Below are positions 14,565 to 61,650 of a stretch of 64,000 nt of DNA, in pieces. Made by a program: the position numbers and the translations under genes. Position 1 is the stretch's first letter. Each line of letters begins with the position of its first letter. This stretch comes from Arenicola marina. Its lineage: Eukaryota > Annelida > Polychaeta > Arenicolidae. The stretch lies in contig OZ025263.1 of assembly GCA_964019135.1 (NCBI GenBank), forward strand, positions 34,512,133 to 34,576,132, in the 5' to 3' direction. The notes below the pieces were generated by a model, which was not told the origin of the DNA, searched no databases, and worked only from the letters and a program-made list of their open reading frames with translations.

Positions 14565-14748
14565 ATGCATTATTATGGAAAACACACTGGCACACGAGAA
14601 CATTTGGGTTCCGCAAAAGGGAATTTGAAGGGTCATTTGCATAAGTCAAGATGTGGAAATCATGACGTCGCTACCGGGAATTGAATCCAGGACCGCCGGC
14701 TTGGCGCACCGGCAGCTCTAACCACTGAGCTATAATGACTAGGTGAAC
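14565..14748 (-). mobile_element. tRNA-derived SINE, copy 1 (head plus body)
   Basis: Read on the minus strand, this has a Pol III A box TAGCTCAGTGGTTAGAG (plus 14716-14732) and a B box GATTCAATTCC (plus 14677-14687). Between them is an anticodon-like arm with CCGGT/GCCGG stems around a 7-nt loop, GCGCCAA. Position 33 is C instead of U and the T stem has mismatches, so this is a SINE head, not a working tRNA. The body continues toward lower coordinates through gacgtcatgattt. Nucleotides 14565-14674 match a second copy at 15341-15458. Confidence 0.75.
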
Positions 14749-15340: not shown

Positions 15341-15458
15341 ATGCATACGTTTTTACGAAGAAACGCTCTGGCACAGGGGACTGAACCATTTGGGATTTAG
15401 AAAAGGAATTTGGAGCGTAATTTATACGAAAAAAGGGTGAAAATCGTGACGTCGCTAC
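15341..15458 (-). mobile_element. SINE fragment, copy 2 (body only, headless)
   Basis: Aligns with 14565-14674: shared atgcat, ctggcaca, catttggg, aaaaggaattt / aaagggaattt and gacgtcgctac in the same order and orientation. It stops exactly where copy 1 enters its B box, so the tRNA-like promoter is missing. Confidence 0.6.
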
Positions 15459-19640: not shown

Positions 19641-20023
19641 AATAGTATATGTCTCGATCTATATGTATGAAAGAAGGCGACCAGATGTAGAGGCCGGTTC
19701 CCCGCCGACCAGATGTAGAGGCCGGTTCCCCGCCGATCATCACCGCCGCTACGCACCCTTCGCTGGCTGTGAGGCTGAGCCTGCACGCATCGCCCGACAC
19801 GACACGGACTCGCCGCGACCAGGCCACAACAACAGGAAACGAAAAGAATGGGTGTTCTGGGCCCCAGTTGGGCACACAATGACTATAACCTGGGCCACTG
19901 AACCCGAGACGATGACAGTTGAGCGGATGAAACATGCCTTAGTTTACGTGCCTCGGCTCGGATTCGAACCCACAACCAATTGACCTGCGGTCCAATGCGC
20001 TAACCACTACACCAGGGAGGCCC
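19641..20023 (-). mobile_element. tRNA-derived SINE with intact A and B boxes
   Basis: On the minus strand the head runs from GGCCTCCCTGG, through A box TGGTGTAGTGGTTAGCGC (plus 19997-20014), to B box GGTTCGAATCC (plus 19960-19970). The GCCTC start pairs with GAGGC after the T arm. It most resembles Gln/Glu-type tRNAs in its D-arm. About 300 bp of unrelated body follow toward lower coordinates and end near an A-rich tract. The body contains a perfect 28-bp tandem duplication (19679-19706 and 19707-19734). The 5' half of this head is the unit of the adjoining 54-bp array. Confidence 0.75.
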
Positions 20024-22040
20024 CTAGGACCTACTGATCTGCGGTCTAATGCGCTAACCACTACACCAGGGAGGCCCCCAGGACCTACTGATCTGCGGTC
20101 TGTTGCGCTAACCACTACACCAGGGAGGCCCCCAGGACCTATTGATCTGCGGTCCAATGCGCTAACCACTACACCAGGGAGGCCCCCAGGACCTACTGAT
20201 CTGCGGTCTGTTGCGCTAACCACTACACCAGGGAGGCCCCCAGGACCTATTGATCTGCGGTCTGTTGCGCTAACCACTACACCAGGGAGGCCCCCAGGAC
20301 CTATTGATCTGCGGTCCAATGCGCTGACCACTACACCAGGAAGGCCCCCAGGACCTACTGATCTGCGGTCCAACGCGCTAACCACTACACCAGGAAGGCC
20401 CCCAGGACCTACTGATCTGCGGTCCAATGCGCTAACCACTACACCAGGGAGGCCCCCAGGACCTACTGATCTGCGGTCGGTTGCGCTAACCACTACACCA
20501 GGGAGGCCCCCAGGACCTATTGATCTGCGGTCTGTTGCGCTAACCACTACACCAGGGAGGTCCCCAGGACCTATTGATCTGCGGTCTGTTGCGCTAACCA
20601 CTACACCAGGGAGGCCCCCAGGACCTATTGATCTGCGGTCTGTTGCGCTAACCACTACACCAGGGAGGTCCCCAGGACCTATTGATCTGCGGTCGGTTGC
20701 GCTAACCACTACACCAGGGAGGCCCCCAAGACGTATTGATCTGCGGTCTGTTGCGCTAACCACTACACCAGGGAGGTCCCCAGGACCTATTGATCTGCGG
20801 TCTGTTGCGCTAACCACTACACCAGGGAGGTCCCCAGGACCTATTGGTCTGCGGTCTGTTGCGCTAACCACTACACCAGGGAGGCCCCCCAGGACGTATT
20901 GATCTGCGGTCCAACGCGCTAACCACTACACCAGGAAGGCCCCCAGGACCTACTGATCTGCGGTCCAATGCGCTAACCACTACACCAGGAAGGCCCCCAG
21001 GACCTATTGATCTGCGGTCTGTTGCGCTAACCACTACACCAGGGAGGTCCCCAGGACCTATTGATCTGCGGTCTGTTGCGCTAACCACTACACCAGGGAG
21101 GCCCCCAGGACCTATTGATCTGCGGTCTGTTGCGCTAACCACTACACCAGGGAGGTCCCCACGACCTATTGATCTGCGGTCTGTTGCGCTAACCACTACA
21201 CCAGGGAGGTCCCCAGGACCTATTGATCTGCGGTCTGTTGCGCTAACCACTACACCAGGGAGGTCCCCAGGACCTATTGATCTGCGGTCTGTTGCGCTAA
21301 CCACTACACCAGGGAGGCCCCCAGGACGTATTGATCTGCGGTCTGTTGCGCTAACCACTACACCAGGAAGGCCCCTAGGACCTACCGATCTGCGGTCCAA
21401 CGCGCTAACCACTACACCAGGAAGGACCCCAGGACCTACCGATCTGCGGTCCAACGCGCTAACCACTACACCAGGAAGGCCCCCAGGACGTATTGATCTG
21501 CAGTCTGTTGCGCTAACCACTACACCAGGGAGGCCCCTAGGACCTACCGATCTGCGGTCCAACGCGCTAACCACTACACCAGGAAGGCCCCCAGGACCTA
21601 CTGATCTGCGGTCCAATGCGCTAACCACTACACCAGGGAGGCCCCCAGGACCTATTGATCTGCGGTCTGTTGCGCTAACCACTACACCAGGGAGGTCCCC
21701 AGGACCTATTGATCTGCGGTCTGTTGCGCTAACCACTACACCAGGGAGGCCCCCAGGACCTATTGATCTGCGGTCTGTTGCGCTAACCACTACACCTGGG
21801 AGGTCCCCACGACCTATTGATCTGCGGTCTGTTGCGCTAACCACTACACCAGGGAGGTCCCCAGGACCTATTGATCTGCGGTCTGTTGCGCTAACCACTA
21901 CACCAGGGAGGTCCCCAGGACCTATTGATCTGCGGTTTAGTGCGCTAACCACTACACCAGGGAGGTCCCCAGGACCTATTGATCTGCGGTCTGTTGCGCT
22001 AACCACTACACCAGGAAGGCCCTCAAGACCATTGATCTGC
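20024..22040 (-). repeat. 54-bp satellite made of the SINE 5' half (about 37 A boxes)
   Basis: Each unit, read on the minus strand, is the start of the neighbouring SINE head: GGCCTCCCTGG, the A box TGGTGTAGTGGTTAGCGC, and the anticodon-arm region ending near AGGTCCTGG. It then restarts before reaching a B box. Variation is concentrated in the anticodon-arm segment (attggacc, aacagacc, gttggacc), while the A box is almost invariant. Because 54 is a multiple of 3, minus-strand frames of 310 and 380 codons (18-residue repeat LPGVVVSATDRRSIGPGD) stay open; I treat them as artefacts. Confidence 0.9.
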
Positions 22041-22160
22041 GGTCAGAACCCCGCACCGGCAGCTTGGGAAGGTCTAACAGACAAAAGCGGACTGTCCACG
22101 GGGTGAACCCACTGTGTCTCGAACCCCGGACCTCGGCCACTGCTCAACAACACAACATAC
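22041..22160 (-). mobile_element. Decapitated SINE remnant with B box
   Basis: A 120-bp unique bridge between two arrays. The minus strand has GTTCGAGAC, matching the B-box core GWTCRANNC (plus 22116-22124), but no A box upstream, where the 30-bp satellite begins. It may be the body of a second SINE that lost its head. Confidence 0.35.
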
Positions 22161-34635: not shown

Positions 34636-34853
34636 TTGGTGGTGGTGGTGATGGTGGTGGTGCTGGTGGTGGTGGCGGGGTGGGGGTGATGTTGGTTGTG
34701 GTTGTGGTTGTAGAGGTGGTGGTGGTGGCGGGGATGGTGGTGGTGGTGGTGGTGGTGGTGCCGGTGGTGGTGGTGGTGGTGGTGGCGGGGATGGTGGTGG
34801 TGGTGGTGGTGGCGGTGGTGGTGGCGGAGTTTGTGGTGGTGGTGGTGATGGAG
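34636..34853. repeat. GGT trinucleotide array with interruptions
   Basis: (ggt)n/(tgg)n broken by ggcgggga, gttgtggttgt and ggtgatg. Encodes only Val/Trp or Thr runs. Confidence 0.93.
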
Positions 34854-35670
34854 CCCTCCCCTTTCCCCGGTATGGAGGCCAGCGCTCTCCCCCTTCCCCG
34901 GTATGGAGGCCAGCGCTCTCCCCCTTCCCCGGTATGGAGGCTAGCGCCCTTCCCTTTCCCCGGTATGGAGGCCAGCGCTCTCCCCCTTCCCCGGTATGGA
35001 GGCCAGCGCCCTTCCCCTTCCCCGGGATGGAGGCCAGCGCCCTCCCCCTTCCCCGGTATGGAGGCCAGCGCCCTCCCCTTTCCCGGTATGGAGGCCAGCG
35101 CCCTTCCTCTTCCCCGGTATGGAGGCCAGCGCCCTTCCCATTCCCCGGTATGGAGGCCAGCGCCCTTCCTCTTCCCCGGTATGGAGGCCAGCGCCCTTCC
35201 CCTTCCCCGGTATGGAGGCCAGCGCCCTCCCCCTTCCCCGGTATGGAGGCCAGCGCCCTTCCTCTTCCCCGGTATGGAGGCCAGCGCCCTTCCCATTCCC
35301 CGGTATGGAGGCCAGCGCCCTTCCTCTTCCCCGGTATGGAGGCCAGCGCCCTTCCCCTTCCCCGGTATGGAGGCCAGCGCCCTCCCCCTTCCCCGGTATG
35401 GAGGCCAGCGCCCTTCCCCTTCCCCGGTATGGAGGCCAGCGCCCTTCCTCTTCCCCGGTATGGAGGCCAGCGCCCTTCCCCTTCCCCGGTATGGAGGCCA
35501 GCGCCCTTCCCCTTCCCCGGTATGGAGGCCAGCGCCCTTCCCCTTCCCCGGTATGGAGGCCAGCGCTCTCCCCCTTCCCCGGTATGGAGGCCAGCGCCCT
35601 TCCCCGGTATGGAGGCCAGCGCCCTCCCCCTTCCCCGGTATGGAGGCCAGCGCCCTTCCCCTTCCCGTCA
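34854..35670. repeat. 31-bp tandem array
   Basis: About 26 units of ggtatggaggccagcgccct plus ttccccttccc. Occasional shorter units lack one tcccct block (near 35080 and 35595). The 31-bp period keeps shifting frame, so the 316-437-codon frames here are products of the repeat. Confidence 0.94.
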
Positions 35671-37262: not shown

Positions 37263-37389
37263 CTAACAACTACGTTCAAATGTCTTCCACGGATTTCGAA
37301 CAAAAGAATATACTATAAATCGATAATTGCTAGATATTTCAGCCTTTTCCTTTTATATTATTATCATATGAAGAAACATATAGCCAGTG

Positions 37390-40300
37390 ACTGTAGGGGA
37401 CGGACCGCTGTCCTGGCGTAGGTGTCTGTAACTGTAGGGGACGGACCGCCGTCATGACGTAGGTGTCTGTGTGGCTGTAAGGGACGGACCGCCGTCATGA
37501 CGTAGGTGTCTGTAACTGTAGGGGACGGACCGCCGTCATGACGTAGGCGTCTGTGTGGCTGTAAGGGACGGACCGCCGTCATGACGTAGGTGTCTGTGAC
37601 TGTAGGGAACGGACCGCCGTCATGACGTAAGTGTCTGTGACTGTAGGGGACGGACCGCTGTCATGGCGTAGTTGTCTGTTTGGCTGTAAGGGACGGACCG
37701 CCGTCATGACGTAGGTGTCTGTGACTGTAGGGGACGGACCGCCGTCATGACGTAGGTGTCTGTGACTGTAAGGGACGGACCGCCGTCATGACGTAGGTGT
37801 CTGTGACTGTAGGGGACGGACCGCCGTCATGACGTAGGTGTCTGTGTGGCTGTAAGGGACGGACCGCCGTCATGACGTAAGTGTCTGTGTGGCTGTAAGG
37901 GACGGACCGCCGTCATGACGTAGGTGTCTGTGTGACTGTAAGGGACGGACCGCCGTCATGACGTAGGTGTCTGTGTGGCTATAAGGGACGGACCGCTGTC
38001 ATGACGTAGGTGTCTGTGTGACTGTTAGGGACGGACCGCCGTCATGACGTAGGTGTCTGTGTGACTGTAAGGGACGGACCGCCGTCATGACGTAGGTGTC
38101 TGTGTGACTGTAAGGGACGGACCGTCTGTGTGACTGTAAAGGACGGACCGCCGTCATGACGTAGGTGTCTGTGTGACTGTTAGGGACGGACCGCCGTCAT
38201 GACGTAGGTGTCTGTGTGACTGTAAGGGACGGACCGCCGTCATGACGTAGGTGTCTGTGTGACTGTTAGGGACGGACCGCCGTCATGACGTAGGTGTCTG
38301 TGTGACTGTAAGGGACGGACCGCCGTCATGACGTAGGTGTCTGTGACTGTAGGGGACGGACCGCCGCCATGACGTAGGTGTCTGTGACTGTAGAGGACGG
38401 ACCGCCGTCATGGCGTAGGTGTCTGTGTGGCTGTAAGGGACGGACCGCCGTCATGACGTAGGTGTCTGTGTGGCTGTAAGGGACGAACCGCCGTCATGAC
38501 GTAGGTGTCTGTGAATGTAGGGGACGGACCGCCGTCATGACGTAGGTGTCTGTGTGACTGTAAGGGACGGACCGCCGTCATGACGTAGGTGTCTGTGACT
38601 GCAGGGGACGGACCGCCGTCATGACGTAGGTGTCTGTGACTGTAGGGGACGGACCGCCGTCATGACGTAGGTGTCTGTGTGACTGTAAGGGACGGACCGC
38701 CGTCATGACGTAGGTGTCTGTGTGACTGTAAGGGACGGACCACCGTCATGACGTAGGTGTCTGTGTGACTGTAAGGGACGGACCGCCGTCATGACGTAGG
38801 TGTCTGTGACTGTAGGGGACGGACCGCCGTCATGACGTAGGTGTCTGTGTGACTGTAAGGGACGGACCGCCGTCATGACGTAGGTGTCTGTGTGGCTGTA
38901 AGGGACGGACCGCCGTCATGACGTAGGTGTCTGTGTGACTGTAAGGGACGGACCGCCGTCATGACGTAGGTGTCTGTGTGGCGGAAAGGGACGGACCGCC
39001 GTCATGACGTAGGTGTCTGTGTGGTCAGTGGCTGTAAGGGACGGACGGCCGTCATGACGTAGGTGTCTGTGTGACTGTAAGGGACGGACCGTCGTCATGA
39101 CGTAGGTGTATGTGTGGCTGTAATGGACGGACCGTCGTCATGACGTAGGTGTATGTGTGGCTGTAATGGACGGACCGCCGTCATGACGTAGGTGTCTGTG
39201 TGGCTGTAAGGGACGGACCGCCGTCATGACGTAGGTGTCTGTGTGGCTGTAAGGGGCGGACCGCCGTCATGACGTAGGTGTATGTGTGGCTGTAATGGAC
39301 GGACCGCCGTCATGACGTAGGTGTCTGTGTGGCTGTAAGGGACGGACCGCCGTCATGACGTAGGTGTCTGTGTGGCTGTAAGGGGCGGACCGCCGTCATG
39401 ACGTAGGTGTATGTGTGGCTGTAATGGACGGACCGCCGTCATGACGTAGGTGTCTGTGTGGCTGTAAGGGACGGACCGCCGTCATGACGTAGGTGTCTGT
39501 GTGACTGTAAGGGACGGACCGCCGTCATGACGTAGGTGTCTGTGTGGCTGTAAGGGACGGACCGCCGTCATGACGTAGGTGTCTGTGTGACTGTAAGGGA
39601 CGGACCGTCGTCATGACGTAGGTGTATGTGTGGCTGTAATGGACGGACCGCCGTCATGACGTAGGTGTCTGTGTGGCTGTAAGGGACGGACCGCCGTCAT
39701 GACGTAGGTGTCTGTGTGGCTGTAAGGGGCGGACCGCCGTCATGACGTAGGTGCCTGTGTGGCTGTAAGGGACGGACGGCCGTCATGACGTAGGTGTCTG
39801 TGTGGTCAGTGGCTGTAAGGGACGGACCGCCGTCATGACGTAGGTGTCTGTGTGGTCAGTGGCTGTAAGGGACGGACCGCCGTCATGACGTAGGTGTCTG
39901 TGTGGTCAGTGGCTGTAAGTGACGGACCGCCGTCATGACGTAGGTGTCTGTGTGGCTGTAAGGGACGGACCGCCGTCATGACGTAGGTGTCTGTGTGGCT
40001 GTAAGGGGCGGACCGCCGTCATGACGTAGGTGTATGTGTGGCTGTAATGGACGGACCGCCGTCATGACGTAGGTGTCTGTGTGGCTGTAAGGGACGGACC
40101 GCCGTCATGACGTAGGTGTCTGTGTGACTGTAAGGGACGGACCGCCGTCATGACGTAAGTGTCTGTGTGGCTGTAATGGACGGACCGCCGTCATGACGTA
40201 GGTGTCTGTGTGACTGTAAGGGACGGACCGTCGTCATGACGTAGGTGTATGTGTGGCTGTAATGGACGGACCGCCGTCGTGACGTAGGTGTCTGTGTGGC

Positions 40301-43300
40301 TGTAAGGGACGGACCGCCGTCATGACGTAGGTGTCTGTGTGGCTGTAAGGGGCGGACCGCCGTCATGACGTAGGTGCCTGTGTGGCTGTAAGGGACGGAC
40401 GGCCGTCATGACGTAGGTGTCTGTGTGGTCAGTGGCTGTAAGGGACGGACCGCCGTCATGACGTAGGTGTCTGTGTGGTCAGTGGCTGTAAGGGACGGAC
40501 CGCCGTCATGACGTGGGTGCCTGTGTGGCTGTAAGGGACGGACCGCCGTCATGACGTAGGTGTCTGTGTGGTCAGTGGCTGTAAGGGACGGACCGCCGTC
40601 ATGACGTAGGTGTCTGTGTGGTCAGTGGCTGTAAGGGACGGACCGCCGTCATGACGTGGTTGCCTGTGTGGCTGTAAGGGACGGACCGCCGTCATGACGT
40701 AGGTGTGTGTGTGGTCAGTGGCTGTAAGGGACGGACCGCTGTCATGACGTAGGTGTCTGTGTGGTCAGTGGCTGTAAGGGACGGACCGCCGTCATGACGT
40801 GGGTGTCTGTGTGGCTGTAAGGGACGGACCGCCGTCATGACGTAGGTGTCTGTGTGGTCAGTGGTTGTAAGGGACGGACCGCTGTCATGACGTAGGTGTC
40901 TGTGTGGTCAGTGGCTGTAAGGGACGGACCGCCGTCATGACGTAGGTGTCTATGTGGTCAGTGGCTGTAAGGGACGGACCGCCGTCATGACGTAGGTGTC
41001 TGTGTGGCTGTAAGGGACGGACCGCCGTCATGACGTAGGTGTCTGTGTGGCTGCAAGGGACGGAACGCCGTCATGACGTAGGTGTCTGTGTGGCTGTAAG
41101 GGACGGACCGCCGTCATGACGTAGGTGCCTGCGTGGCTGTAAGGGACGGACGGCCGTCATGACGCAGGTGTCTGTGTGGTCAGTGGCTGTAAGGGACGGA
41201 CCGCCGTCATGACGTAGGTGTCTGTGTGGTCAGTGGCTGTAAGGGACGGATTGCCGTCATGACGTGGGTGCCTGTGTGGCTGTAAGGGACGGACCGCCGT
41301 CATGACGTAGGTGTCTGTGTGGTCAGTGGCTGTAAGGGACGGACCGCCGTCATGACATAGGTGTCTGTGTGGCTGTAAGGGACGGACCGCCGTGATAACG
41401 TAGATATCTGTGTGGCTGTAAGGGACGGACCGCCGTCATGACGTAGGTGTCTGTGTGGCTGTGAGGGACAGACCGCCGTCATGACGTAGGTGTCTGTGTG
41501 GCTGTGAGGGACAGACCGCCGTCATGACGTAGGTGTCTGTGTGACTGTGAGCGACAGACCGCCGTCATGACGTAGGTGTCTGTGTGGCTGTGAGGGACAG
41601 ACCGCCGTCATGACGTAGGTGTCTGTGTGACTGTGAGCGACAGACCGCCGTCATGACGTAGGTGTCTGTGTGGCTGTAAGGGACGGACCGCCGTCATGAC
41701 GTAGGTGTCTGTGTGGCTGTGAGGGACAGACCGCCGTCATGACGTAGGTGTCTGTGTGGCTGTAAGGGACGGACCGCCGTCATGACGTAGGTGTCTGTGT
41801 GGCTGTGAGGGACAGACCGCCGTCATGACGTAGGTGTCTGTGTGACTGTGAGCGACAGACCGCCGTCATGACGTAGGTGTCTGTGTGGCTGTAAGGGACG
41901 GACCGCCGTCATGACGTAGGTGTCTGTGTGGCTGTGAGGGACAGACCGCCGTCATGACGTAGGTGTCTGTGTGGCTGTGAGGGACAGACCGCCGTCATGA
42001 CGTAGGTGTCTGTGTGGCTGTGAGGGACAGACCGCCGTCATGACGTAGGTGTCTGTGGGGCTGTGAGGGACAGACCGCCGTCATGACGTAGGTGTCTGTG
42101 TGGCTGTGAGGGACAGACCGCCGTCATGACGTAGGTGTCTGTGTGGCTGTGAGGGACAGACCGCCGTCATGACGTAGGTGTCTGTGTGGCTGTGAGGGAC
42201 AGACCGCCGTCATGACGTAGGTGTCTGTGTGGCTGTGAGGGACAGACCGCCGTCATGACGTAGGTGTCTGTGTGGCTGTGAGGGACAGACCGCCGTCATG
42301 ACGTAGGTGTCTGTGTGGCTGTGAGGGACAGACCGCCGTCATGACGTAGGTGTCTGTGTGGCTGTGAGGGACAGACCGCCGTCATGACGTAGGTGTCTGT
42401 GTGGCTGTGAGGGACAGACCGCCGTCATGACGTAGGTGTCTGTGTGGCTGTGAGGGACAGACCGCCGTCATGACGTAGGTGTCTGTGTGGCTGTGAGGGA
42501 CAGACCGCCGTCATGACGTAGGTGTCTGTGTGGCTGTGAGGGACAGACCGCCGTCATGACGTAGGTGTCTGTGGGGCTGTGAGGGACAGACCGCCGTCAT
42601 GACGTAGGTGTCTGTGTGGCTGTGAGGGACAGACCGCCGTCATGACGTAGGTGTCTGTGTGGCTGTGAGGGACAGACCGCCGTCATGACGTAGGTGTCTG
42701 TGTGGCTGTGAGGGACAGACCGCCGTCATGACGTAGGTGTCTGTGTGGCTGTGAGGGACAGACCGCCGTCATGACGTAGGTGTCTGTGTGGCTGTGAGGG
42801 ACAGACCGCCGTCATGACGTAGGTGTCTGTGGGGCTGTGAGGGACAGACCGCCGTCATGACGTAGGTGTCTGTGGGGCTGTGAGGGACAGACCGCCGTCA
42901 TGACGTAGGTGTCTGTGTGGCTGTGAGGGACAGACCGCCGTCATGACGTAGGTGTCTGTGTGGCTGTGAGGGACAGACCGCCGTCATGACGTAGGTGTCT
43001 GTGTGGCTGTAAGGGACGGACCGCCGTCATGACGTAGGTGTCTGTGTGGCTGTGAGGGACAGACCGCCGTCATGACGTAGGTGTCTGTGTGGCTGTAAGG
43101 GACGGACCGCCGTCATGACGTAGGTGTCTGTGTGGCTGTGAGGGACAGACCGCCGTCATGACGTAGGTGTCTGTGTGGCTGTGAGGGACAGACCGCCGTC
43201 ATGACGTAGGTGTCTGTGTGGCTGTAAGGGACGGACCGCCGTCATGACGTAGGTGTCTGTGTGGCTGTAAGGGACAGACCGCCGTCATGACGTAGGTGTC

Positions 43301-44415
43301 TGTGTGGCTGTGAGGGACAGACCGCCGTCATGACGTAGGTGTCTGTGTGACTGTAAGGGACGGACCGCCGTCATGACGTAGGTGTCTGTGTGGCTGTGAG
43401 GGACGGACCGCCGTCATGACGTAGGTGTCTGTGTGGCTGTAAGGGACAGACCGCCGTCATGACGTAGGTGTCTGTGTGGCTGTGAGGGACAGACCGCCGT
43501 CATGACGTAGGTGTCTGTGTGACTGTAAGGGACGGACCGCCGTCATGACGTAGGTGTCTGTGTGGCTGTGAGGGACAGACCGCCGTCATGACGTAGGTGT
43601 ATGTGTGGCTGTAAGGGACGGACCGCCGTCATGACGTCATGACGTAGGTGTCTGTGTGGCTGTGAGGGACAGACCGCCGTCATGACGTAGGTGTCTGTGT
43701 GGCTGTGAGGGACGGACCGCCGTCATGACGTAGGTGTCTGTGTGGCTGTGAGGGACAGACCGCCGTCATGACGTAGGTGTCTGTGTGGCTGTGAGGGACA
43801 GACCGCCGTCATGACGTAGGTGTCTGTGTGGCTGTGAGGGACAGACCGCCGTCATGACGTAGGTGTCTGTGTGGCTGTGAGGGACAGACCGCCGTCATGA
43901 CGTAGGTGTCTGTGTGGCTGTGAGGGACGGACCGCCGTCATGACGTAGGTGTCTGTGTGGCTGTGAGGGACAGACCGCCGTCATGACGTAGGTGTCTGTG
44001 TGGCTGTGAGGGACAGACCGCCGTCATGACGTAGGTGTCTGTGTGGCTGTGAGGGACAGACCGCCGTCATGACGTCATGACGTAGGTGTCTGTGTGGCTG
44101 TGAGGGACAGACCGCCGTCATGACGTAGGTGTCTGTGTGGCTGTGAGGGACAGACCGCCGTCATGACGTAGGTGTCTGTGTGGCTGTGAGGGACAGACCG
44201 CCGTCATGACGTAGGTGTCTGTGTGGCTGTGAGGGACAGACCGCCGTCATGACGTAGGTGTCTGTGTGGCTGTGAGGGACAGACCGCCGTCATGACGTAG
44301 GTGTCTGTGTGGCTGTGAGGGACAGACCGCCCTCATGACGTCATGACGTAGGTGTCTGTGTGGCTGTGAGGGACAGACCGCCCTCATGACGTCATGACGT
44401 AGGTGTCTGTGTGAC
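37390..44415. repeat. 7-kb array of 43-bp units (with 38-50-bp variants)
   Basis: Unit core is ggacggaccgccgtcatgac followed by gtaggtgtctgtgtggctgt. Roughly 165 copies. Each has the 10-bp palindrome CGTCATGACG and a TGACGT half-CRE. The left part has mixed shorter units (gtgactgtagg) and 50-bp units with an extra gtcagtg; from about 41.46 kb the variant gtgagggacagacc dominates and is almost uniform. Full TGACGTCA octamers appear near 43633, 44073, 44336 and 44388, where ATGACGTC is duplicated. Confidence 0.96.
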
Positions 44416-52439: not shown

Positions 52440-55400
52440 CGGTGCCCCCAGGGTGTGGGCGGTGTCACCAGGGTAGCGATGCCCCCAAGGTGTGGGCGGT
52501 GACACCAGGGTAGCGGTGCACCAGGGTAGCGGTGTCCCCAAGGTGTGGGCGGTGACACCAGGGTAGCGGTGACACCAGGGTAGCGATGCCCCCAAGGTGT
52601 GGGCGGTGTCACCAGGGTAGCGGTGCACCAGGGTAGCGGTGCACCAGGGTAGCGGTGACACCAGGGTAGCGGTGCACCAGGTTAGCGGTGCACCAGGGTA
52701 GCGGTGTCACCAGGGTGTGGGCGGTGACACCAGGGTAGCGGTGCACCAGGGTAGCGGTGCACCAGGGTAGCGGTGACACCAGGTTAGCGGTGCACCAGGT
52801 TAGCGGTGCACCAGGGTAGCGGTGACACCAGGGTAGCGGTGCACCAGGGTAGCGGTGCACCAGGGTAGCGGTGACACCAGGGTAGCGGTGTCCCCAAGGT
52901 GTGGGCGCTGTCACCAGGGTAGCGGTGCACCAGGGTAGCGGTGACACCAGGGTAGCGGTGTCCCCAGGGTGTGGGCGGTGACACCAGGGTAGCGGTGTCC
53001 CCAAGGTGTGGGCGGTGTCACCAGGGTAGCGGTGTCCCCAAGGTGTGGGCGCTGACACCAGGGTAGCGATGCCCCCAAGGTGTGGGCGGTGTCACCAGGG
53101 TAGCGATGCCCCCAAGGTGTGGGCGGTGTCACCAGGGTAGCGGTGCACCAGGGTAGCGGTGACACCAGGGTAGCGGTGTCCCCAGGGTGTGGGCGGTGAC
53201 ACCAGGGTAGCGGTGTCCCCAGGGTGTGGGCGGTGACACCAGGGTAGCGGTGCCCCAAAGGTGTGGGCGCTGACACAATGGTAGCGGTGTCCCCAAGGTG
53301 TGGGCGGTGACACCAGGGTAGCGGTGCCCCCAGGGTGTGGGCGGTGACACCAGGGTAGCGGTGACACCAGGGTAGCGGTGCACCAGGGTAGCGGTGACAC
53401 CAGGGTAGCGGTGACACCAGGGTAGCGGTGACACCAGGGTAGCGGTGTCAACTGGGTAGCGGTGCCCCCATGGTGTGGGCGGTGACACCAGGGTAGCGGT
53501 GACACCAGGGTAGCGGTGACACCAGGGTAGCGGTGACACCAGGGTAGCGGTGTCACCAGGGTAGCGGTGACACCAGGGTAGCGGTGACACCAGGGTAGCG
53601 GTGACACCAGGGTAGCGGTGACACCAGGGTAGCGGTGACACCAGGGTAGCGGTGACACCAGGGTAGCGGTGCACCAGGGTGTGGGCGGTGACACCAGGGT
53701 AGCGGTGCACCAGGGTAGCGGTGCACCAGGGTAGCGGTGACACCAGGGTAGCGGTGACACCAGGGTAGCGGTGACACCAGGGTAGCGGTGACACCAGGGT
53801 AGCGGTGCACCAGGGTAGCGGTGACACCAGGGTAGCGGTGACACCAGGGTAGCGGTGTCACCAGGGTAGCGGTGCCCCCAGGGTAGCGGTGCACCAGGGT
53901 AGCGGTGCACCAGGGTAGCGGTGACACCAGGGTAGCGGTGACACCAGGGTAGCGGTGACACCAGGGTAGCGGTGACACCAGGGTAGCGGTGACACCAGGG
54001 TAGCGGTGACACCAGGGTAGCGGTGACACCAGGTTAGCGGTGCACCAGGGTAGCGGTGACACCAGGGTAGCGGTGACACCAGGTTAGCGGTGACACCAGG
54101 GTAGCGGTGACACCAGGGTAGCGGTGACACCAGGGTAGCGGTGACACCAGGGTAGCGGTGACACCAGGGTAGCGGTGACACCAGGGTAGCGGTGACACCA
54201 GGGTAGCGGTGACACCAGGGTAGCGGTGACACCAGGTTAGCGGTGCACCAGGGTAGCGGTGACACCAGGGTAGCGGTGACACCAGGGTAGCGGTGACACC
54301 AGGGTAGCGGTGACACCAGGGTAGCGGTGACACCAGGGTAGCGGTGCACCAGGGTAGCGGTGACACCAGGGTAGCGGTGACACCAGGGTAGCGGTGACAC
54401 CAGGGTAGCGGTGTCACCAGGGTAGCGGTGACACCAGGGTAGCGGTGCACCAGGGTAGCGGTGCACCAGGGTAGCGGTGACACCAGGGTAGCGGTGACAC
54501 CAGGGTAGCGGTGCCCCCAGGGTGTGGGCGGTGACACCAGGGTAGCGGTGCACCAGGGTGTGGGCGGTGACACCAGGGTAGCGGTGCACCAGGGTAGCGG
54601 TGACACCAGGGTAGCGGTGACACCAGGGTAGCGGTGCACCAGGGTAGCGGTGACACCAGGGTAGCGGTGCCCCCAGGGTGTGGGCGGTGACACCAGGGTA
54701 GCGGTGACACCAGGGTAGCGGTGCACCAGGGTAGCGGTGCACCAGGGTAGCGGTGACACCAGGGTAGCGGTGTCACCAGGGTAGCGGTGCACCAGGGTAG
54801 CGGTGACACCAGGGTAGCGGTGACACCAGGGTAGCGGTGCCCCCAGGGTGTGGGCGGTGACACCAGGGTAGCGGTGCACCAGGTTAGCGGTGCACCAGGG
54901 TAGCGGTGACACCAGGGTAGCGGTGCCCCCAGGGTGTGGGCGGTGACACCAGGGTAGCGGTGCACCAGGTTAGCGGTGCACCAGGGTAGCGGTGACACCA
55001 GGGTAGCGGTGCCCCCAGGGTGTGGGCGGTGACACCAGGGTAGCGGTGCACCAGGGTAGCCGTGTCACCAGGGTAGCGGTGACACCAGGCTGGCGGTGAC
55101 ACCAGGGTAGCGGTGACACCAGGGTAGCGGTGCACCAGGGTAGCGGTGACACCAGGGTAGCGGTGCCCCCAGGGTGTGGGCGGTGACACCAGGGTAGCGG
55201 TGCACCAGGTTAGCGGTGCACCAGGGTAGCGGTGACACCAGGGTAGCGGTGCCCCCAGGGTGTGGGCGGTGACACCAGGGTAGCGGTGCACCAGGTTAGC
55301 GGTGCACCAGGGTAGCGGTGACACCAGGGTAGCGGTGCACCAGGGTAGCGGTGCACCAGGGTAGCCGTGTCACCAGGGTAGCGGTGACACCAGGTTAGCG

Positions 55401-58400
55401 GTGCACCAGGGTAGCGGTGACACCAGGGTAGCGGTGCACCAGGGTAGCGGTGACACCAGGGTAGCGGTGACACCAGGCTGGCGGTGACACCAGGGTAGCG
55501 GTGACACCAGGGTGTGGGCGGTGACACCAGGGTAGCGGTGCACCAGGGTAGCGGTGCACCAGGGTAGCGGTGCACCAGGGTAGCGGTGCACCAGGGTAGC
55601 GGTGCACCAGGGTAGCGGTGCACCAGGGTAGCGGTGTCACCAGGGTAGCGGTGCACCAGGGTAGCGGTGCACCAGGGTAGCCGTGTCACCAGGGTAGCGG
55701 TGCCCCCAGGGTGTGGGCGGTGACACCAGGGTAGCGGTGCACCAGGGTAGCGGTGACACCAGGGTAGCGGTGCCCCCAGGGTGTGGGCGGTGACACCAGG
55801 GTAGCGGTGCACCAGGGTAGCGGTGACACCAGGCTGGCGGTGACACCAGGGTAGCGGTGACACCAGGGTAGCGGTGACACCAGGGTAGCGGTGACACCAG
55901 GGTAGCGGTGCACCAGGGTAGCGGTGACACCAGGGTAGCGGTGTCACCAGGGTAGCGATGCCCCCAAGGTGTGGGCGGTGACACCAGGCTGGCGGTGACA
56001 CCAGGCTGGCGGTGCACCAGGGTAGCGGTGACACCAGGCTGGCGGTGACACCAGGGTAGCGGTGCACCAGGGTAGCCGTGTCACCAGGGTAGCGGTGACA
56101 CCAGGCTGGCGGTGACACCAGGGTAGCGGTGCACCAGGGTAGCGGTGCACCAGGTTAGCGGTGCACCAGGGTAGCGGTGCACCAGGATAGCGGTGCACCA
56201 GGGTAGCGGTGCACCAGGGTAGCGGTGACACCAGGGTAGCGGTGACACCAGGGTAGCGGTGTCACCAGGGTAGCGGTGCCCCCAGGGTGTGGGCGGTGAC
56301 ACCAGGGTAGCGGTGCACCAGGGTAGCGGTGCACCAGGGTAGCGGTGCACCAGGGTAGCGGTGCACCAGGGTAGCGGTGACACCAGGGTAGCGGTGCCCC
56401 CAGGGTGTGGGTGGTGTCACCAGGGTAGCGGTGCCCCCAGGGTGTGGGCGGTGACACCAGGGTAGCGGTGCACCAGGGTAGCCGTGTCACCAGGGTAGCG
56501 GTGACACCAGGCTGGCGGTGACACCAGGGTAGCGGTGCCCCCAGGGTGTGGGCGGTGACACCAGGGTAGCGGTGCCCCCAGGGTGTGGGCGGTGACACCA
56601 GGGTAGCGGTGACACCAGGGTAGCGGTGCCCCCAGGGTGTGGGTGGTGTCACCAGGGTAGCGGTGCACCAGGGTAGCCGTGTCACCAGGGTAGCGGTGAC
56701 ACCAGGCTGGCGGTGACACCAGGGTAGCGGTGTCACCAGGGTAGCGGTGACACCAGGGTAGCGGTGACACCAGGGTAGCGGTGCACCAGGGTAGCGGTGA
56801 CACCAGGGTAGCGGTGACACCAGGGTAGCGGTGCACCAGGGTAGCGGTGACACCAGGGTAGCGGTGACACCAGGGTAGCGGTGCACCAGGGTAGCGGTGC
56901 ACCAGGGTAGCGGTGCACCAGGGTAGCGGTGACACCAGGGTAGCGGTGCCCCCAGGGTGTGGGCGGTGACACCAGGGTAGCGGTGCACCAGGGTAGCCGT
57001 GTCACCAGGGTAGCGGTGACACCAGGGTAGCGGTGCCCCCAGGGTGTGGGCGGTGACACCAGGGTAGCGGTGCACCAGGGTAGCGGTGACACCAGGGTAG
57101 CGGTGACACCAGGGTAGCGGTGCACCAGGGTAGCGGTGACACCAGGGTAGCGGTGCACCAGGGTAGCGGTGACACCAGGGTAGCGGTGACACCAGGTTAG
57201 CGGTGACACCAGGGTAGCGGTGCACCAGGGTAGCGGTGTCACCAGGGTAGCGGTGACACCAGGGTAGCGGTGACACCAGGGTAGCGGTGCACCAGGGTAG
57301 CGGTGACACCAGGTTAGCGGTGACACCAGGGTAGCGGTGACACCAGGGTAGCGGTGACACCAGGTTAGCGGTGACACCAGGGTAGCGGTGCACCAGGGTA
57401 GCGGTGTCACCAGGGTAGCGGTGACACCAGGGTAGCGGTGCACCAGGGTAGCGGTGACACCAGGGTAGCGGTGACACCAGGTTAGCGGTGACACCAGGGT
57501 AGCGGTGACACCAGGGTAGCGGTGACACCAGGTTAGCGGTGACACCAGGGTAGCGGTGACACCAGGGTAGCGGTGACACCAGGGTAGCGGTGCACCAGGG
57601 TAGCGGTGACACCAGGGTAGCGGTGCACCAGGGTAGCGGTGACACCAGGGTAGCGGTGACACCAGGGTAGCGGTGCACCAGGGTAGCGGTGACACCAGGG
57701 TAGCGGTGCACCAGGGTAGCCGTGTCACCAGGGTAGCGGTGACACCAGGGTAGCGGTGCCCCCAGGGTGTGGGCGGTGACACCAGGGTAGCGGTGCACCA
57801 GGGTAGCGGTGACACCAGGGTAGCGGTGACACCAGGGTAGCGGTGCACCAGGGTAGCGGTGACACCAGGGTAGCGGTGCACCAGGGTAGCGGTGACACCA
57901 GGGTAGCGGTGACACCAGGTTAGCGGTGACACCAGGGTAGCGGTGCACCAGGGTAGCGGTGTCACCAGGGTAGCGGTGACACCAGGGTAGCGGTGACACC
58001 AGGGTAGCGGTGCACCAGGGTAGCGGTGACACCAGGGTAGCGGTGCACCAGGGTAGCGGTGACACCAGGGTAGCGGTGACACCAGGTTAGCGGTGACACC
58101 AGGGTAGCGGTGACACCAGGGTAGCGGTGTCACCAGGGTAGCGGTGACACCAGGGTAGCGGTGCACCAGGGTAGCGGTGCACCAGGGTAGCGGTGACACC
58201 AGGGTAGCGGTGACACCAGGGTAGCGGTGACACCAGGGTAGCGGTGACACCAGGGTAGCGGTGCACCAGGGTAGCGGTGACACCAGGGTAGCGGTGACAC
58301 CAGGGTAGCGGTGCACCAGGGTAGCGGTGCACCAGGGTAGCGGTGCACCAGGGTAGCGGTGCACCAGGGTAGCGGTGCACCAGGGTAGCGGTGCACCAGG

Positions 58401-61400
58401 GTAGCGGTGACACCAGGGTAGCGGTGCCCCCAGGGTGTGGGCGGTGACACCAGGGTAGCGGTGCACCAGGGTAGCGGTGCACCAGGGTAGCGGTGACACC
58501 AGGGTAGCGGTGCACCAGGGTAGCGGTGACACCAGGTTAGCGGTGACACCAGGGTGTGGGCGGTGACACCAGGGTAGCGGTGCACCAGGGTAGCGGTGCC
58601 CCCAGGGTGTGGGCGGTGACACCAGGGTAGCGGTGCACCAGGGTAGCGGTGACACCAGGGTAGCGGTGCCCCCAGGGTGTGGGCGGTGACACCAGGGTAG
58701 CGGTGCACCAGGGTAGCGGTGACACCAGGGTAGCGGTGCCCCCAGGGTGTGGGTGGTGACACCAGGGTAGCGGTGCACCAGGGTAGCGGTGACACCAGGC
58801 TGGCGGTGACACCAGGGTAGCGGTGACACCAGGGTAGCGGTGACACCAGGGTAGCGGTGACACCAGGGTAGCGGTGCCCCCAGGGTGTGGGCGGTGACAC
58901 CAGGGTAGCGGTGCACCAGGGTAGCGGTGCACCAGGGTAGCGGTGCACCAGGGTAGCGGTGACACCAGGGTAGCGGTGCCCCCAGGGTGTGGGCGGTGAC
59001 ACCAGGGTAGCGGTGCACCAGGGTAGCGGTGACACCAGGCTGGCGGTGACACCAGGGTAGCGGTGACACCAGGGTAGCGGTGACACCAGGGTAGCGGTGA
59101 CACCAGGGTAGCGGTGCACCAGGGTAGCGGTGACACCAGGGTAGCGGTGTCACCAGGGTAGCGATGCCCCCAAGGTGTGGGCGGTGACACCAGGCTGGCG
59201 GTGACACCAGGCTGGCGGTGCACCAGGGTAGCGGTGACACCAGGCTGGCGGTGACACCAGGGTAGCGGTGCACCAGGGTAGCCGTGTCACCAGGGTAGCG
59301 GTGACACCAGGCTGGCGGTGCACCAGGGTAGCGGTGCACCAGGGTAGCGGTGACACCAGGGTAGCGGTGACACCAGGGTAGCGGTGTCACCAGGGTAGCG
59401 GTGCCCCCAGGGTGTGGGCGGTGACACCAGGGTAGCGGTGCACCAGGGTAGCGGTGCACCAGGGTAGCGGTGCACCAGGGTAGCGGTGACACCAGGGTAG
59501 CGGTGCCCCCAGGGTGTGGGCGGTGACACCAGGGTAGCGGTGCACCAGGGTAGCGGTGCACCAGGGTAGCGGTGACACCAGGGTAGCGGTGCCCCCAGGG
59601 TGTGGGTGGTGACACCAGGGTAGCGGTGCACCAGGGTAGCGGTGACACCAGGCTGGCGGTGACACCAGGGTAGCGGTGACACCAGGGTAGCGGTGACACC
59701 AGGGTAGCGGTGACACCAGGGTAGCGGTGCCCCCAGGGTGTGGGCGGTGACACCAGGGTAGCGGTGCACCAGGGTAGCGGTGCACCAGGGTAGCGGTGCA
59801 CCAGGGTAGCGGTGACACCAGGGTAGCGGTGTCACCAGGGTAGCGGTGACACCAGGGTAGCGGTGCACCAGGGTAGCGGTGCACCAGGGTAGCGGTGTCA
59901 CCAGGGTAGCGGTGCACCAGGGTAGCGGTGACACCAGGGTAGCGGTGACACCAGGGTAGCGGTGCACCAGGGTAGCGGTGCACCAGGGTAGCGGTGCACC
60001 AGGGTAGCGGTGACACCAGGGTAGCGGTGCCCCCAGGGTGTGGGCGGTGACACCAGGGTAGCGGTGCACCAGGGTAGCGGTGACACCAGGCTGGCGGTGA
60101 CACCAGGGTAGCGGTGACACCAGGGTAGCGGTGACACCAGGGTAGCGGTGACACCAGGGTAGCGGTGCACCAGGGTAGCGGTGACACCAGGGTAGCGGTG
60201 TCACCAGGGTAGCGATGCCCCCAAGGTGTGGGCGGTGACACCAGGCTGGCGGTGACACCAGGCTGGCGGTGCACCAGGGTAGCGGTGACACCAGGCTGGC
60301 GGTGACACCAGGGTAGCGGTGCACCAGGGTAGCCGTGTCACCAGGGTAGCGGTGACACCAGGCTGGCGGTGCACCAGGGTAGCGGTGACACCAGGGTAGC
60401 GGTGACACCAGGGTAGCGGTGCACCAGGGTAGCGGTGACACCAGGGTAGCGGTGACACCAGGGTAGCGGTGACACCAGGGTAGCGGTGCACCAGGGTAGC
60501 GGTGACACCAGGGTAGCGGTGACACCAGGTTAGCGGTGCACCAGGGTAGCGGTGACACCAGGGTAGCGGTGACACCAGGGTAGCGGTGACACCAGGGTAG
60601 CGGTGCACCAGGGTAGCGGTGCACCAGGGTAGCGGTGCCCCCAGGGTGTGGGCGGTGACACCAGGGTAGCGGTGCACCAGGGTAGCGGTGCACCAGGGTA
60701 GCGGTGCACCAGGGTAGCGGTGACACCAGGGTAGCGGTGCCCCCAGGGTGTGGGTGGTGTCACCAGGGTAGCGGTGCCCCCAGGGTGTGGGCGGTGACAC
60801 CAGGGTAGCGGTGCACCAGGGTGTGGGTGGTGTCACCAGGGTAGCGGTGCCCCCAGGGTGTGGGCGGTGACACCAGGGTAGCGGTGCACCAGGGTAGCCG
60901 TGTCACCAGGGTAGCGGTGACACCAGGCTGGCGGTGACACCAGGGTAGCGGTGCCCCCAGGGTGTGGGCGGTGACACCAGGGTAGCGGTGCCCCCAGGGT
61001 GTGGGCGGTGACACCAGGGTAGCGGTGACACCAGGGTAGCGGTGCCCCCAGGGTGTGGGTGGTGTCACCAGGGTAGCGGTGCCCCCAGGGTGTGGGTGGT
61101 GTCACCAGGGTAGCGGTGTCACCAGGGTAGCGGTGCACCAGGTTAGCGGTGCACCAGGGTAGCGGTGACACCAGGGTAGCGGTGCCCCCAGGGTGTGGGT
61201 GGTGTCACCAGCGTAGCGGTGCCCCCGGGGTGTGGGTGGTGACACCAGGGTAGCGGTGCCCCCAGGGTGTGGGTGGTGTCACCAGGGTAGCGGTGCACCA
61301 GGGTAGCGGTGCCCCCAGGGTGTGGGTGGTGTCACCAGGGTAGCGGTGCCCCCAGGGTGTGGGTGGTGTCACCAGGGTAGCGGTGCCCCCAGGGTGTGGG

Positions 61401-61650
61401 TGGTGTCACCAGGGTAGCGGTGACACCAGGGTGTGGGTGGTGTCACCAGGGTAGCGGTGACACCAGGGTGTGGGTGGTGACACCAGGGTAGCGGTGCCCC
61501 CAGGGTGTGGGTGGTGTCACCAGGGTAGCGGTGCCCCCAGGGTGTGGGTGGTGTCACCAGGGTAGCGGTGACACCAGGGTGTGGGTGGTGACACCAGGGT
61601 AGCGGTGCCCCCAGGGTGTGGGTGGTGACACCAGGGTAGCGGTGCCTGGC
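52440..61650. repeat. 9.2-kb satellite of 16/17-bp units with longer interruptions
   Basis: The two main units are agggtagcggtgacacc (17 bp) and agggtagcggtgcacc (16 bp), interspersed with gggtgtgggcggtgacacca blocks. They differ by one A at the centre of a palindrome: GGTGACACC against GGTGCACC. About 500 units. Minor types include gttagcgg, gctggcgg and gtagccgtgtcacc. Large blocks are duplicated: a module starting gatgcccccaaggtgtgg recurs at 55957, 59163 and 60214. Right of about 60.7 kb the gggtgtgggtggtgtcacc type dominates. Minus-strand frames reach 1,022 codons but are repeat-derived. Confidence 0.96.

What the first reader, a model, noticed from the sequence alone, without database searches (positions are those of the whole stretch)
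19949..22040. A satellite grown from the promoter half of a SINE: about 37 tandem Pol III A boxes beside one B box
Seen: the 54-bp unit is the 5' half of the adjacent tRNA-like SINE head (acceptor start, D arm with A box TGGTGTAGTGGTTAGCGC, anticodon region), and the only complete A+B promoter is at the downstream end (minus strand). Known: TFIIIC binds A and B boxes, with the B box giving most of the affinity, and isolated sites can act as chromatin boundaries. Inference: the array is either an expansion by unequal exchange within the SINE head or a platform of partial TFIIIC sites. The A box seems better conserved than the anticodon-arm part of the same unit, which neutral decay would not predict.
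Basis: partly seen in the sequence, partly recalled or inferred. Interest (0 to 1): 0.72.

Follow-up and report, generated by a model that had tools for sequence, protein, structure and literature searches.

The report
Satellite built from a SINE head
A short piece of a common mobile element, its front end with half of its promoter, has been copied head to tail dozens of times here and thousands of times across the genome; it looks like ordinary satellite DNA growth, not a special control region.

Summary
The array is real. On the minus strand there are 37 tandem 54-bp units plus one complete SINE head, with 38 A boxes (36 exact) and one exact B box. The unit is the SINE 5' end up to the first bases of the B box, joined at a GGG microhomology.

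The parent SINE is real. The 867-Mb genome has 2,066 exact A+B heads, and 24 of 25 headed copies sampled by their body have target-site duplications. The same unit forms arrays elsewhere: 4,859 exact adjacent A-box pairs, 0 in the control, at 28 or more places, one with 80 heads. This is a SINE-derived satellite.

The A box is unusually quiet in this window (pi 0.006 vs 0.106). In other arrays the A/rest ratio scatters from 0.09 to 2.90. In eight arrays not taken from the A-pair listing, 43 of 135 singleton variants fall in the A box's 18 of 54 positions (32% against 33% expected), so new mutations are not depleted there.

Best explanation: neutral satellite growth from a SINE head, a kind known from squamate reptiles (PMC10702118). 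A TFIIIC platform is not supported.

The parts
20030..22028 (-). 37 tandem 54-bp units (one carries a 1-bp insertion), each with one A box
22029..22044 (-). partial unit at the 5' edge of the array; the boundary lies in mid-unit (at GACCG), not at the SINE 5' end
   Evidence: sequence by eye; TRF end
19949..20021 (-). complete tRNA-like SINE head, 3' terminal copy of the array; tRNA covariance score 18.2 bits, below the gathering score of 29
19997..20014 (-). A box of the terminal head (core TGGTGTAGTGG fits TRGYNNARBGG)
19960..19970 (-). the only exact B box in the window, GGTTCGAATCC, spacing 33 bp from the A box
19842..19948 (-). diverged SINE body, ending next to a TTTT run (AAAA on + at 19842) that could end a Pol III transcript
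   Evidence: alignment to family member L011, score 93 vs shuffle maximum 29 of 300; TTTT position

Best explanation
It is a SINE-derived satellite. A tRNA-derived SINE, about 0.2 kb long, has the 5' end GGGG(G)CCTCCC and the internal sequence CCTGGGTTCGA at the start of its B box. A join between the two at the shared GGG made a 54-bp duplication of the promoter's A-box part (junction and microhomology are seen; the joining event is inferred). Unequal exchange, slippage or similar turnover then lengthened and shortened the duplication at many loci (inferred from locus-specific variants and shared segments). The last copy stays attached to the rest of the SINE. At most that complete head is a Pol III promoter of normal spacing; the other A boxes are passengers. 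The A box is quiet in this array by chance of which variants spread.
For: Dispersed SINE: 24 of 25 headed copies of the body-anchored sample have duplications of 9 bp or more; all 11 single-head copies of the first sample have flanking direct repeats, of which four (L006, L008, L010, L019) may be site repeats. Same unit and junction register in the array loci displayed, most often AGGTCCTGGGGGCCTCCC, with point variants at C4, C11 and C20. Counts: 4,859 adjacent exact A-box pairs vs 0 control; 2,717 pairs of another 17-mer of the unit at the same period. Groups of 80, 19, 11, 11, 7, 6, 3, 3, 3 and 2 heads at eight other loci. Terminal head linked to a SINE body. The rare variant in units 5 and 17 with like neighbours fits a 12-unit segment duplication (lag-12 P 0.017, uncorrected among 19 lags). 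A single-head SINE inserted into an array on C7 (by eye). Singletons in the A box 43 of 135. 71% of the window lies in TRF arrays.
Against: In this window a neutral growth simulation rarely gives a third of the unit as quiet: 1.8-3.5% of accepted runs for the quietest third after collapsing linked sites, and at most 0.6% for a third named beforehand. Among the nine tandem arrays of the window that I examined, this one has the lowest quiet/rest ratio (0.053; next 0.083). Over 13 other rows the mean pi is lowest exactly at the A-box arc (0.096 vs 0.127; median ratio 0.78), though one row (L022) joins two arrays and two loci came only from the A-pair listing. More exact A-box pairs (4,859) than mid-unit pairs (2,717) exist genome-wide. 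No clear target-site duplication was found at the window copy or at 8 other array copies; the best candidate (C7a, 11 bp, 0 of 60 shuffles as good) lies in unit-like sequence.
Confidence: 0.82

Rival explanations
1. Platform of partial TFIIIC sites: repeated A boxes are kept by selection and bind TFIIIC weakly, anchored by the one B box, as a boundary or decoy.
For: A box quiet in this array and rarely so by simulation; 36 of 38 A-box 18-mers exact; one good B box at normal spacing; A/rest ratio below 1 in 10 of 14 rows and mean pi lowest at the A arc, partly by selection of loci; B box kept in 8 of 10 groups.
Against: Ratios 1.08, 0.76, 1.32, 0.85, 1.05 in arrays found by the head search; singletons in proportion, 43 of 135; unit has no B box; terminal B box altered or deleted at L063, L064 and L065.
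Confidence: 0.07
2. Many-headed SINE: transcripts that start at an upstream head were reverse transcribed, so elements with several heads moved as such. Mid-unit 5' edges are 5' truncations.
For: Same junction register at the loci displayed, several with a terminal head reading GTGGG where the units read CTGGG; copies with 2 and 3 heads; no TTTT inside the window array or the C9 array; mid-unit 5' edges.
Against: No clear target-site duplication at 9 array copies or at L061; 0 of 29 other body-anchored copies have more than one head; the GTGGG link is biased, because the query itself carried GTGGG.
Confidence: 0.2
3. Independent tandem duplication of the head at each locus, by recurrent use of the same GGG microhomology.
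For: Microhomology is built into the SINE; terminal heads share locus-specific variants with their own array, e.g. L023, L025.
Against: The same junction register, mostly with the same five G, is more simply explained by one or few origins.
Confidence: 0.3

Closest known systems
SINE-derived satellites (sSat) of squamate reptiles, Vassetzky et al. 2023, PMC10702118 (abstract, passages and Discussion seen)
   Same: Short tandem unit cut from a tRNA-derived SINE; longer terminal unit continuing into the SINE; many loci; from few to hundreds of units; locus-specific subvariants.
   Different: Different SINE and genome. Here the unit is the first 54 bp with the A box and no B box; the major snake unit (67 nt) covers the 3' part of the head with box B and part of the body. 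Some gecko variants do use the 5' or tRNA part.
Amphibian tRNA-related tandem repeats (Xenopus OAX/satellite 1, Hydromantes Hy/polIII, Cynops, Rana), as described in PMC10702118 and the table of PMC9659126 (passages seen)
   Same: Tandem units with a tRNA-like part.
   Different: Units of about 200 nt or more where a length is given; link to a known SINE doubted by PMC10702118. Here the parent SINE is shown.
ETC (extra TFIIIC) sites of yeast, PMC5356446 (passages seen)
   Same: Sites considered because of TFIIIC-type promoter elements outside ordinary genes.
   Different: Those loci are defined by TFIIIC occupancy, which was not measured here; the array units hold A boxes only.

Membership tests
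tRNA-derived SINE (parent element) | tRNA-like head with A and B boxes at Pol III spacing | tested here: met
   Exact consensus boxes, spacing 33 bp; weak tRNA covariance match 18.2 bits, E 2.2, below gathering
tRNA-derived SINE (parent element) | Dispersed copies flanked by target-site duplications | tested here: met
   24 of 25 headed copies; direct repeats at 11 of 11 in the first sample, four of them possibly site repeats. At the window copy itself none was found
tRNA-derived SINE (parent element) | Shared body and short-repeat 3' tail | tested here: met
   Common body ending in ATTTC/ATTCC repeats; window body homologous
SINE-derived satellite (sSat) | Tandem unit is a portion of a SINE, more than four units | tested here: met
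   37 units here, 80 heads on C9
SINE-derived satellite (sSat) | Longer terminal unit continuing to the SINE terminus | tested here: met
SINE-derived satellite (sSat) | Several loci of the same unit | tested here: met
SINE-derived satellite (sSat) | Preference for subtelomeric regions | not tested
   Listings were cut to the first places; the window lies at 34.5 of 38.4 Mb of its contig
TFIIIC/ETC-type site | TFIIIC occupancy | not testable with these tools
   No ChIP data
TFIIIC/ETC-type site | B box in the repeated unit (B box as main affinity site: recalled, from the finding, not from a call) | tested here: not met
   Best match in the array has 3 of 10 mismatches; same on C9

The most novel reading that the evidence does not exclude
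Many-headed SINEs: a SINE lineage whose promoter front is repeated, with upstream A boxes used together with the single distant B box, so that transcripts grow in 54-nt steps and elements with varying head numbers were themselves mobile, seeding satellites across the genome.
Probability: 0.12. Interest if true: 0.65.

Novelty: new member of a known kind. Interest (0 to 1): 0.33.

Why it matters
It gives a clear case, in a genome of about 0.87 Gb that is not named to me, of a SINE turning into a satellite. The parent element, the junction, the microhomology and copies with 1, 2, 3, 7, 11, 19, 38 and 80 heads are all visible. PMC10702118 left open whether such satellites are restricted to squamates. 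Arrays built only from A boxes would also be a natural test of whether an A box without a B box recruits TFIIIC.

Tried and rejected
Constraint on the A box. First tests in the window alone were mixed: Fisher 0.030 on variable positions; singletons 2 of 8 (P 0.47); a scan over an event list made by eye gave 0.32; neutral simulations gave 0 to 1.4% for the quietest third and 1.8-3.5% after collapsing linked sites. I rejected a family-wide constraint after looking at other arrays. The 13 non-window rows give 77 of 246 singletons in the A box. By how they were found: head search L021, L023, L024, L025, 35 of 107; mid-unit-pair listing only L060-L063, 8 of 28; both listings L059 and L066, 15 of 47; A-pair listing only L064 and L065, 2 of 16; L022, 17 of 48, joins two arrays across a gap and was left out of the 43 of 135 (first two groups). 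L025 joins array parts and an inserted SINE and was kept. One search tested an earlier grouping (53 of 156 and 7 of 42) that wrongly counted L059 as A-pair only; it is replaced. That mend, the ratio tally (below 1 in 10 of 14) and the B-box count made me lower the best explanation from 0.85 to 0.82 and raise the platform from 0.05 to 0.07.

Single-head divergence (A 0.011 vs rest of head 0.033, 25 copies) was not used: copies had been filtered on a recognisable A box and the rest included gap columns.

Target-site duplication at array loci: none clear in 9 of 9, with weak candidates at C7a (0 of 60 shuffles as good) and C17 (3 of 60), nor at L061. RNA folding of head and units: no unusual stability. 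Pfam on 10 open frames of the window: no match above a curated cut-off. The 20-mer CCTGGTGTAGTGGTTAGCGC has no exact match in the viral or prokaryote contigs scanned. Paper searches for the sequence found none; those for tandem A boxes or SINE-derived satellites gave PMC10702118 and PMC12692304, the latter seen only as a listing. The organism was not identified. A pair count for a third 17-mer (junction) did not complete.

Full report
What is there. On the minus strand of 19842-22044 lies a SINE whose front end has been repeated. Tandem Repeats Finder reports 19975-22044, period 54, 38.3 copies. The 18-mer with the A box occurs 38 times, 36 exactly and 2 with one mismatch, against a shuffle mean of 0.07. 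All spacings are 54 except one of 55. The only exact B box of the window follows the last A box core by 33 bp, within the 32-34 bp seen for 86% of 359 human tRNA genes (PMC10137851, passage seen). The complete head scores 18.2 bits as a tRNA, below the curated 29.

What the unit is. Compared with single-head family members, the unit starts at the SINE 5' end, GGGG(G)CCTCCC, and runs through A box, anticodon part and GGTCCTGGG, that is, into the first bases of the B box, where it jumps back to the 5' end (read by eye). The shared GGG at both ends is the microhomology. So the unit holds nearly all of the head up to the B box. The 5' edge of the array meets unrelated sequence in mid-unit.

The parent SINE. 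With the head as query the genome search gave 59 matches from 40 scored of 573 first-look candidates. An exact A+B pattern occurs 2,066 times (1,012 + 1,054; control 0). All 11 single-head copies of the first sample have flanking direct repeats better than 60 of 60 shuffles; in four of them (L006, L008, L010, L019) the aligned repeat is 41-46 columns long and may be a repeat of the site. In a second sample anchored on the SINE body (30 loci cut out of 40 listed matches; one is the C9 array), the other 29 have one head (25) or none (4), and 24 of the 25 have duplications of 9 bp or more. The window's own body aligns to a family member with score 93 (shuffle maximum 29 of 300). The window copy shows no target-site duplication.

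Other arrays. The first search returned array-bearing SINEs on C4, C7 (two places), C9, C11 (two), C17 and C20. One search shows ten groups of 2 to 80 heads there; 8 of the 10 have a B-box site 43 bp after the last A box by the pattern used. Of the other two, one (C7b) has GGTTCAAATCC, which still fits the degenerate consensus, and one runs into an inserted SINE. The query contained the B box, which favours this. Exact adjacent A-box pairs at 53-55 bp number 4,859 (1,622 + 3,237; control 0), and pairs of another 17-mer of the unit 2,717 (790 + 1,927). From the listings I count by eye 28 separate places; the last two listings stop on C2 and C3, so this is a lower bound. The junction register is common to the loci displayed. 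On C7 a single-head SINE sits inside an array, with array sequence repeated on both sides of it, so that array is older than the insertion (by eye).

Is the A box under constraint? In the window it is quiet: pi 0.006 vs 0.106; 2 of 18 vs 15 of 36 variable positions (Fisher 0.030). Neutral growth simulations reach this rarely, and none of eight other arrays examined in the window has so low a ratio (0.083-0.33 vs 0.053). Singletons, the newest mutations, are not depleted (2 of 8). Other arrays of the same unit found by the head search give A/rest ratios of 1.08 (79 units), 0.76 (18), 1.32 (11), 0.85 (9) and 1.05 (5); a sixth has no variation. Eight further loci gave 0.33, 0.69, 2.90, 0.21, 1.12, 0.17, 0.09 and 0.75 (L059 to L066). 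L064 and L065 (0.17, 0.09) came only from the listing of exact A-box pairs, L059 and L066 from both listings, the rest from the mid-unit listing. Over the 14 rows the ratio is below 1 in 10, median 0.77 (0.78 without the window), and the mean over the 13 other rows is lowest at the A-box arc (0.096 vs 0.127); one of these rows, L022, wrongly joins two arrays. Exact A-box pairs outnumber mid-unit pairs, but counts per locus point both ways (window 35 vs 13, C9 19 vs 33). Singletons, less shaped by which variants spread, fall in the A box in proportion: 35 of 107 in the four arrays of the head search, 43 of 135 in the eight arrays outside the A-pair listing (P 0.78), 58 of 182 with the two in both listings (P 0.70). 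I conclude that the local observation is right, that a mild average quietness is possible, and that constraint is not supported.

How it most likely works. Shown: a dispersed SINE; a fixed 54-bp unit with one junction register; arrays of many sizes; locus-specific variants; an attached terminal SINE. Inferred: an original misjoining at GGG, and growth by unequal exchange or slippage. In a window where 71% of bases lie in TRF arrays, amplification needs no special property of A boxes. The complete head might be a Pol III promoter, with a TTTT run at the SINE end, but its head and body are diverged. Inner units have no B box (best 3 of 10 mismatches). Of the eight loci the 3' end could be read in four: L061 keeps an exact B box, L064 and L065 have two changes at best match, and in L063 the array runs straight into late body sequence without one.

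Comparison with the known. SINE-derived satellites of squamates (PMC10702118; abstract, passages and Discussion seen) have the same architecture, including the longer terminal unit. My searches for tandem A boxes or SINE-derived satellites in print gave that paper and one review not read (broader searches); the library holds open-licence papers only.

Noticed in passing
14666-14739, minus strand: A second, different tRNA-like sequence (Rfam tRNA 38.9 bits, ARAGORN tRNA-Gly GCC), with exact A box and a B box with one mismatch at 34 bp spacing; its flank has a 75% match at 15387-15458. It may be another SINE.
   Followed up: partly
1-64000: About 71% of the window lies in TRF arrays, e.g. 29 bp x 335 at 736-10213, 43 bp x about 161 at 37387-44392, and 17/33 bp units at 52459-61644.
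   Followed up: partly
L006, L008, L010, L019: Single-head SINE copies whose flanking repeats align over 41-46 columns, as if inserted into pre-existing repeats.
   Followed up: no
L025 (C7, about 35.355 Mb): A single-head SINE nested in a 54-bp unit array, giving a relative age of array and insertion.
   Followed up: partly
34853-35666: The 31-bp array also has a very quiet third (pi 0.008 vs 0.092); I know of no promoter element in it and did not look for one.
   Followed up: no
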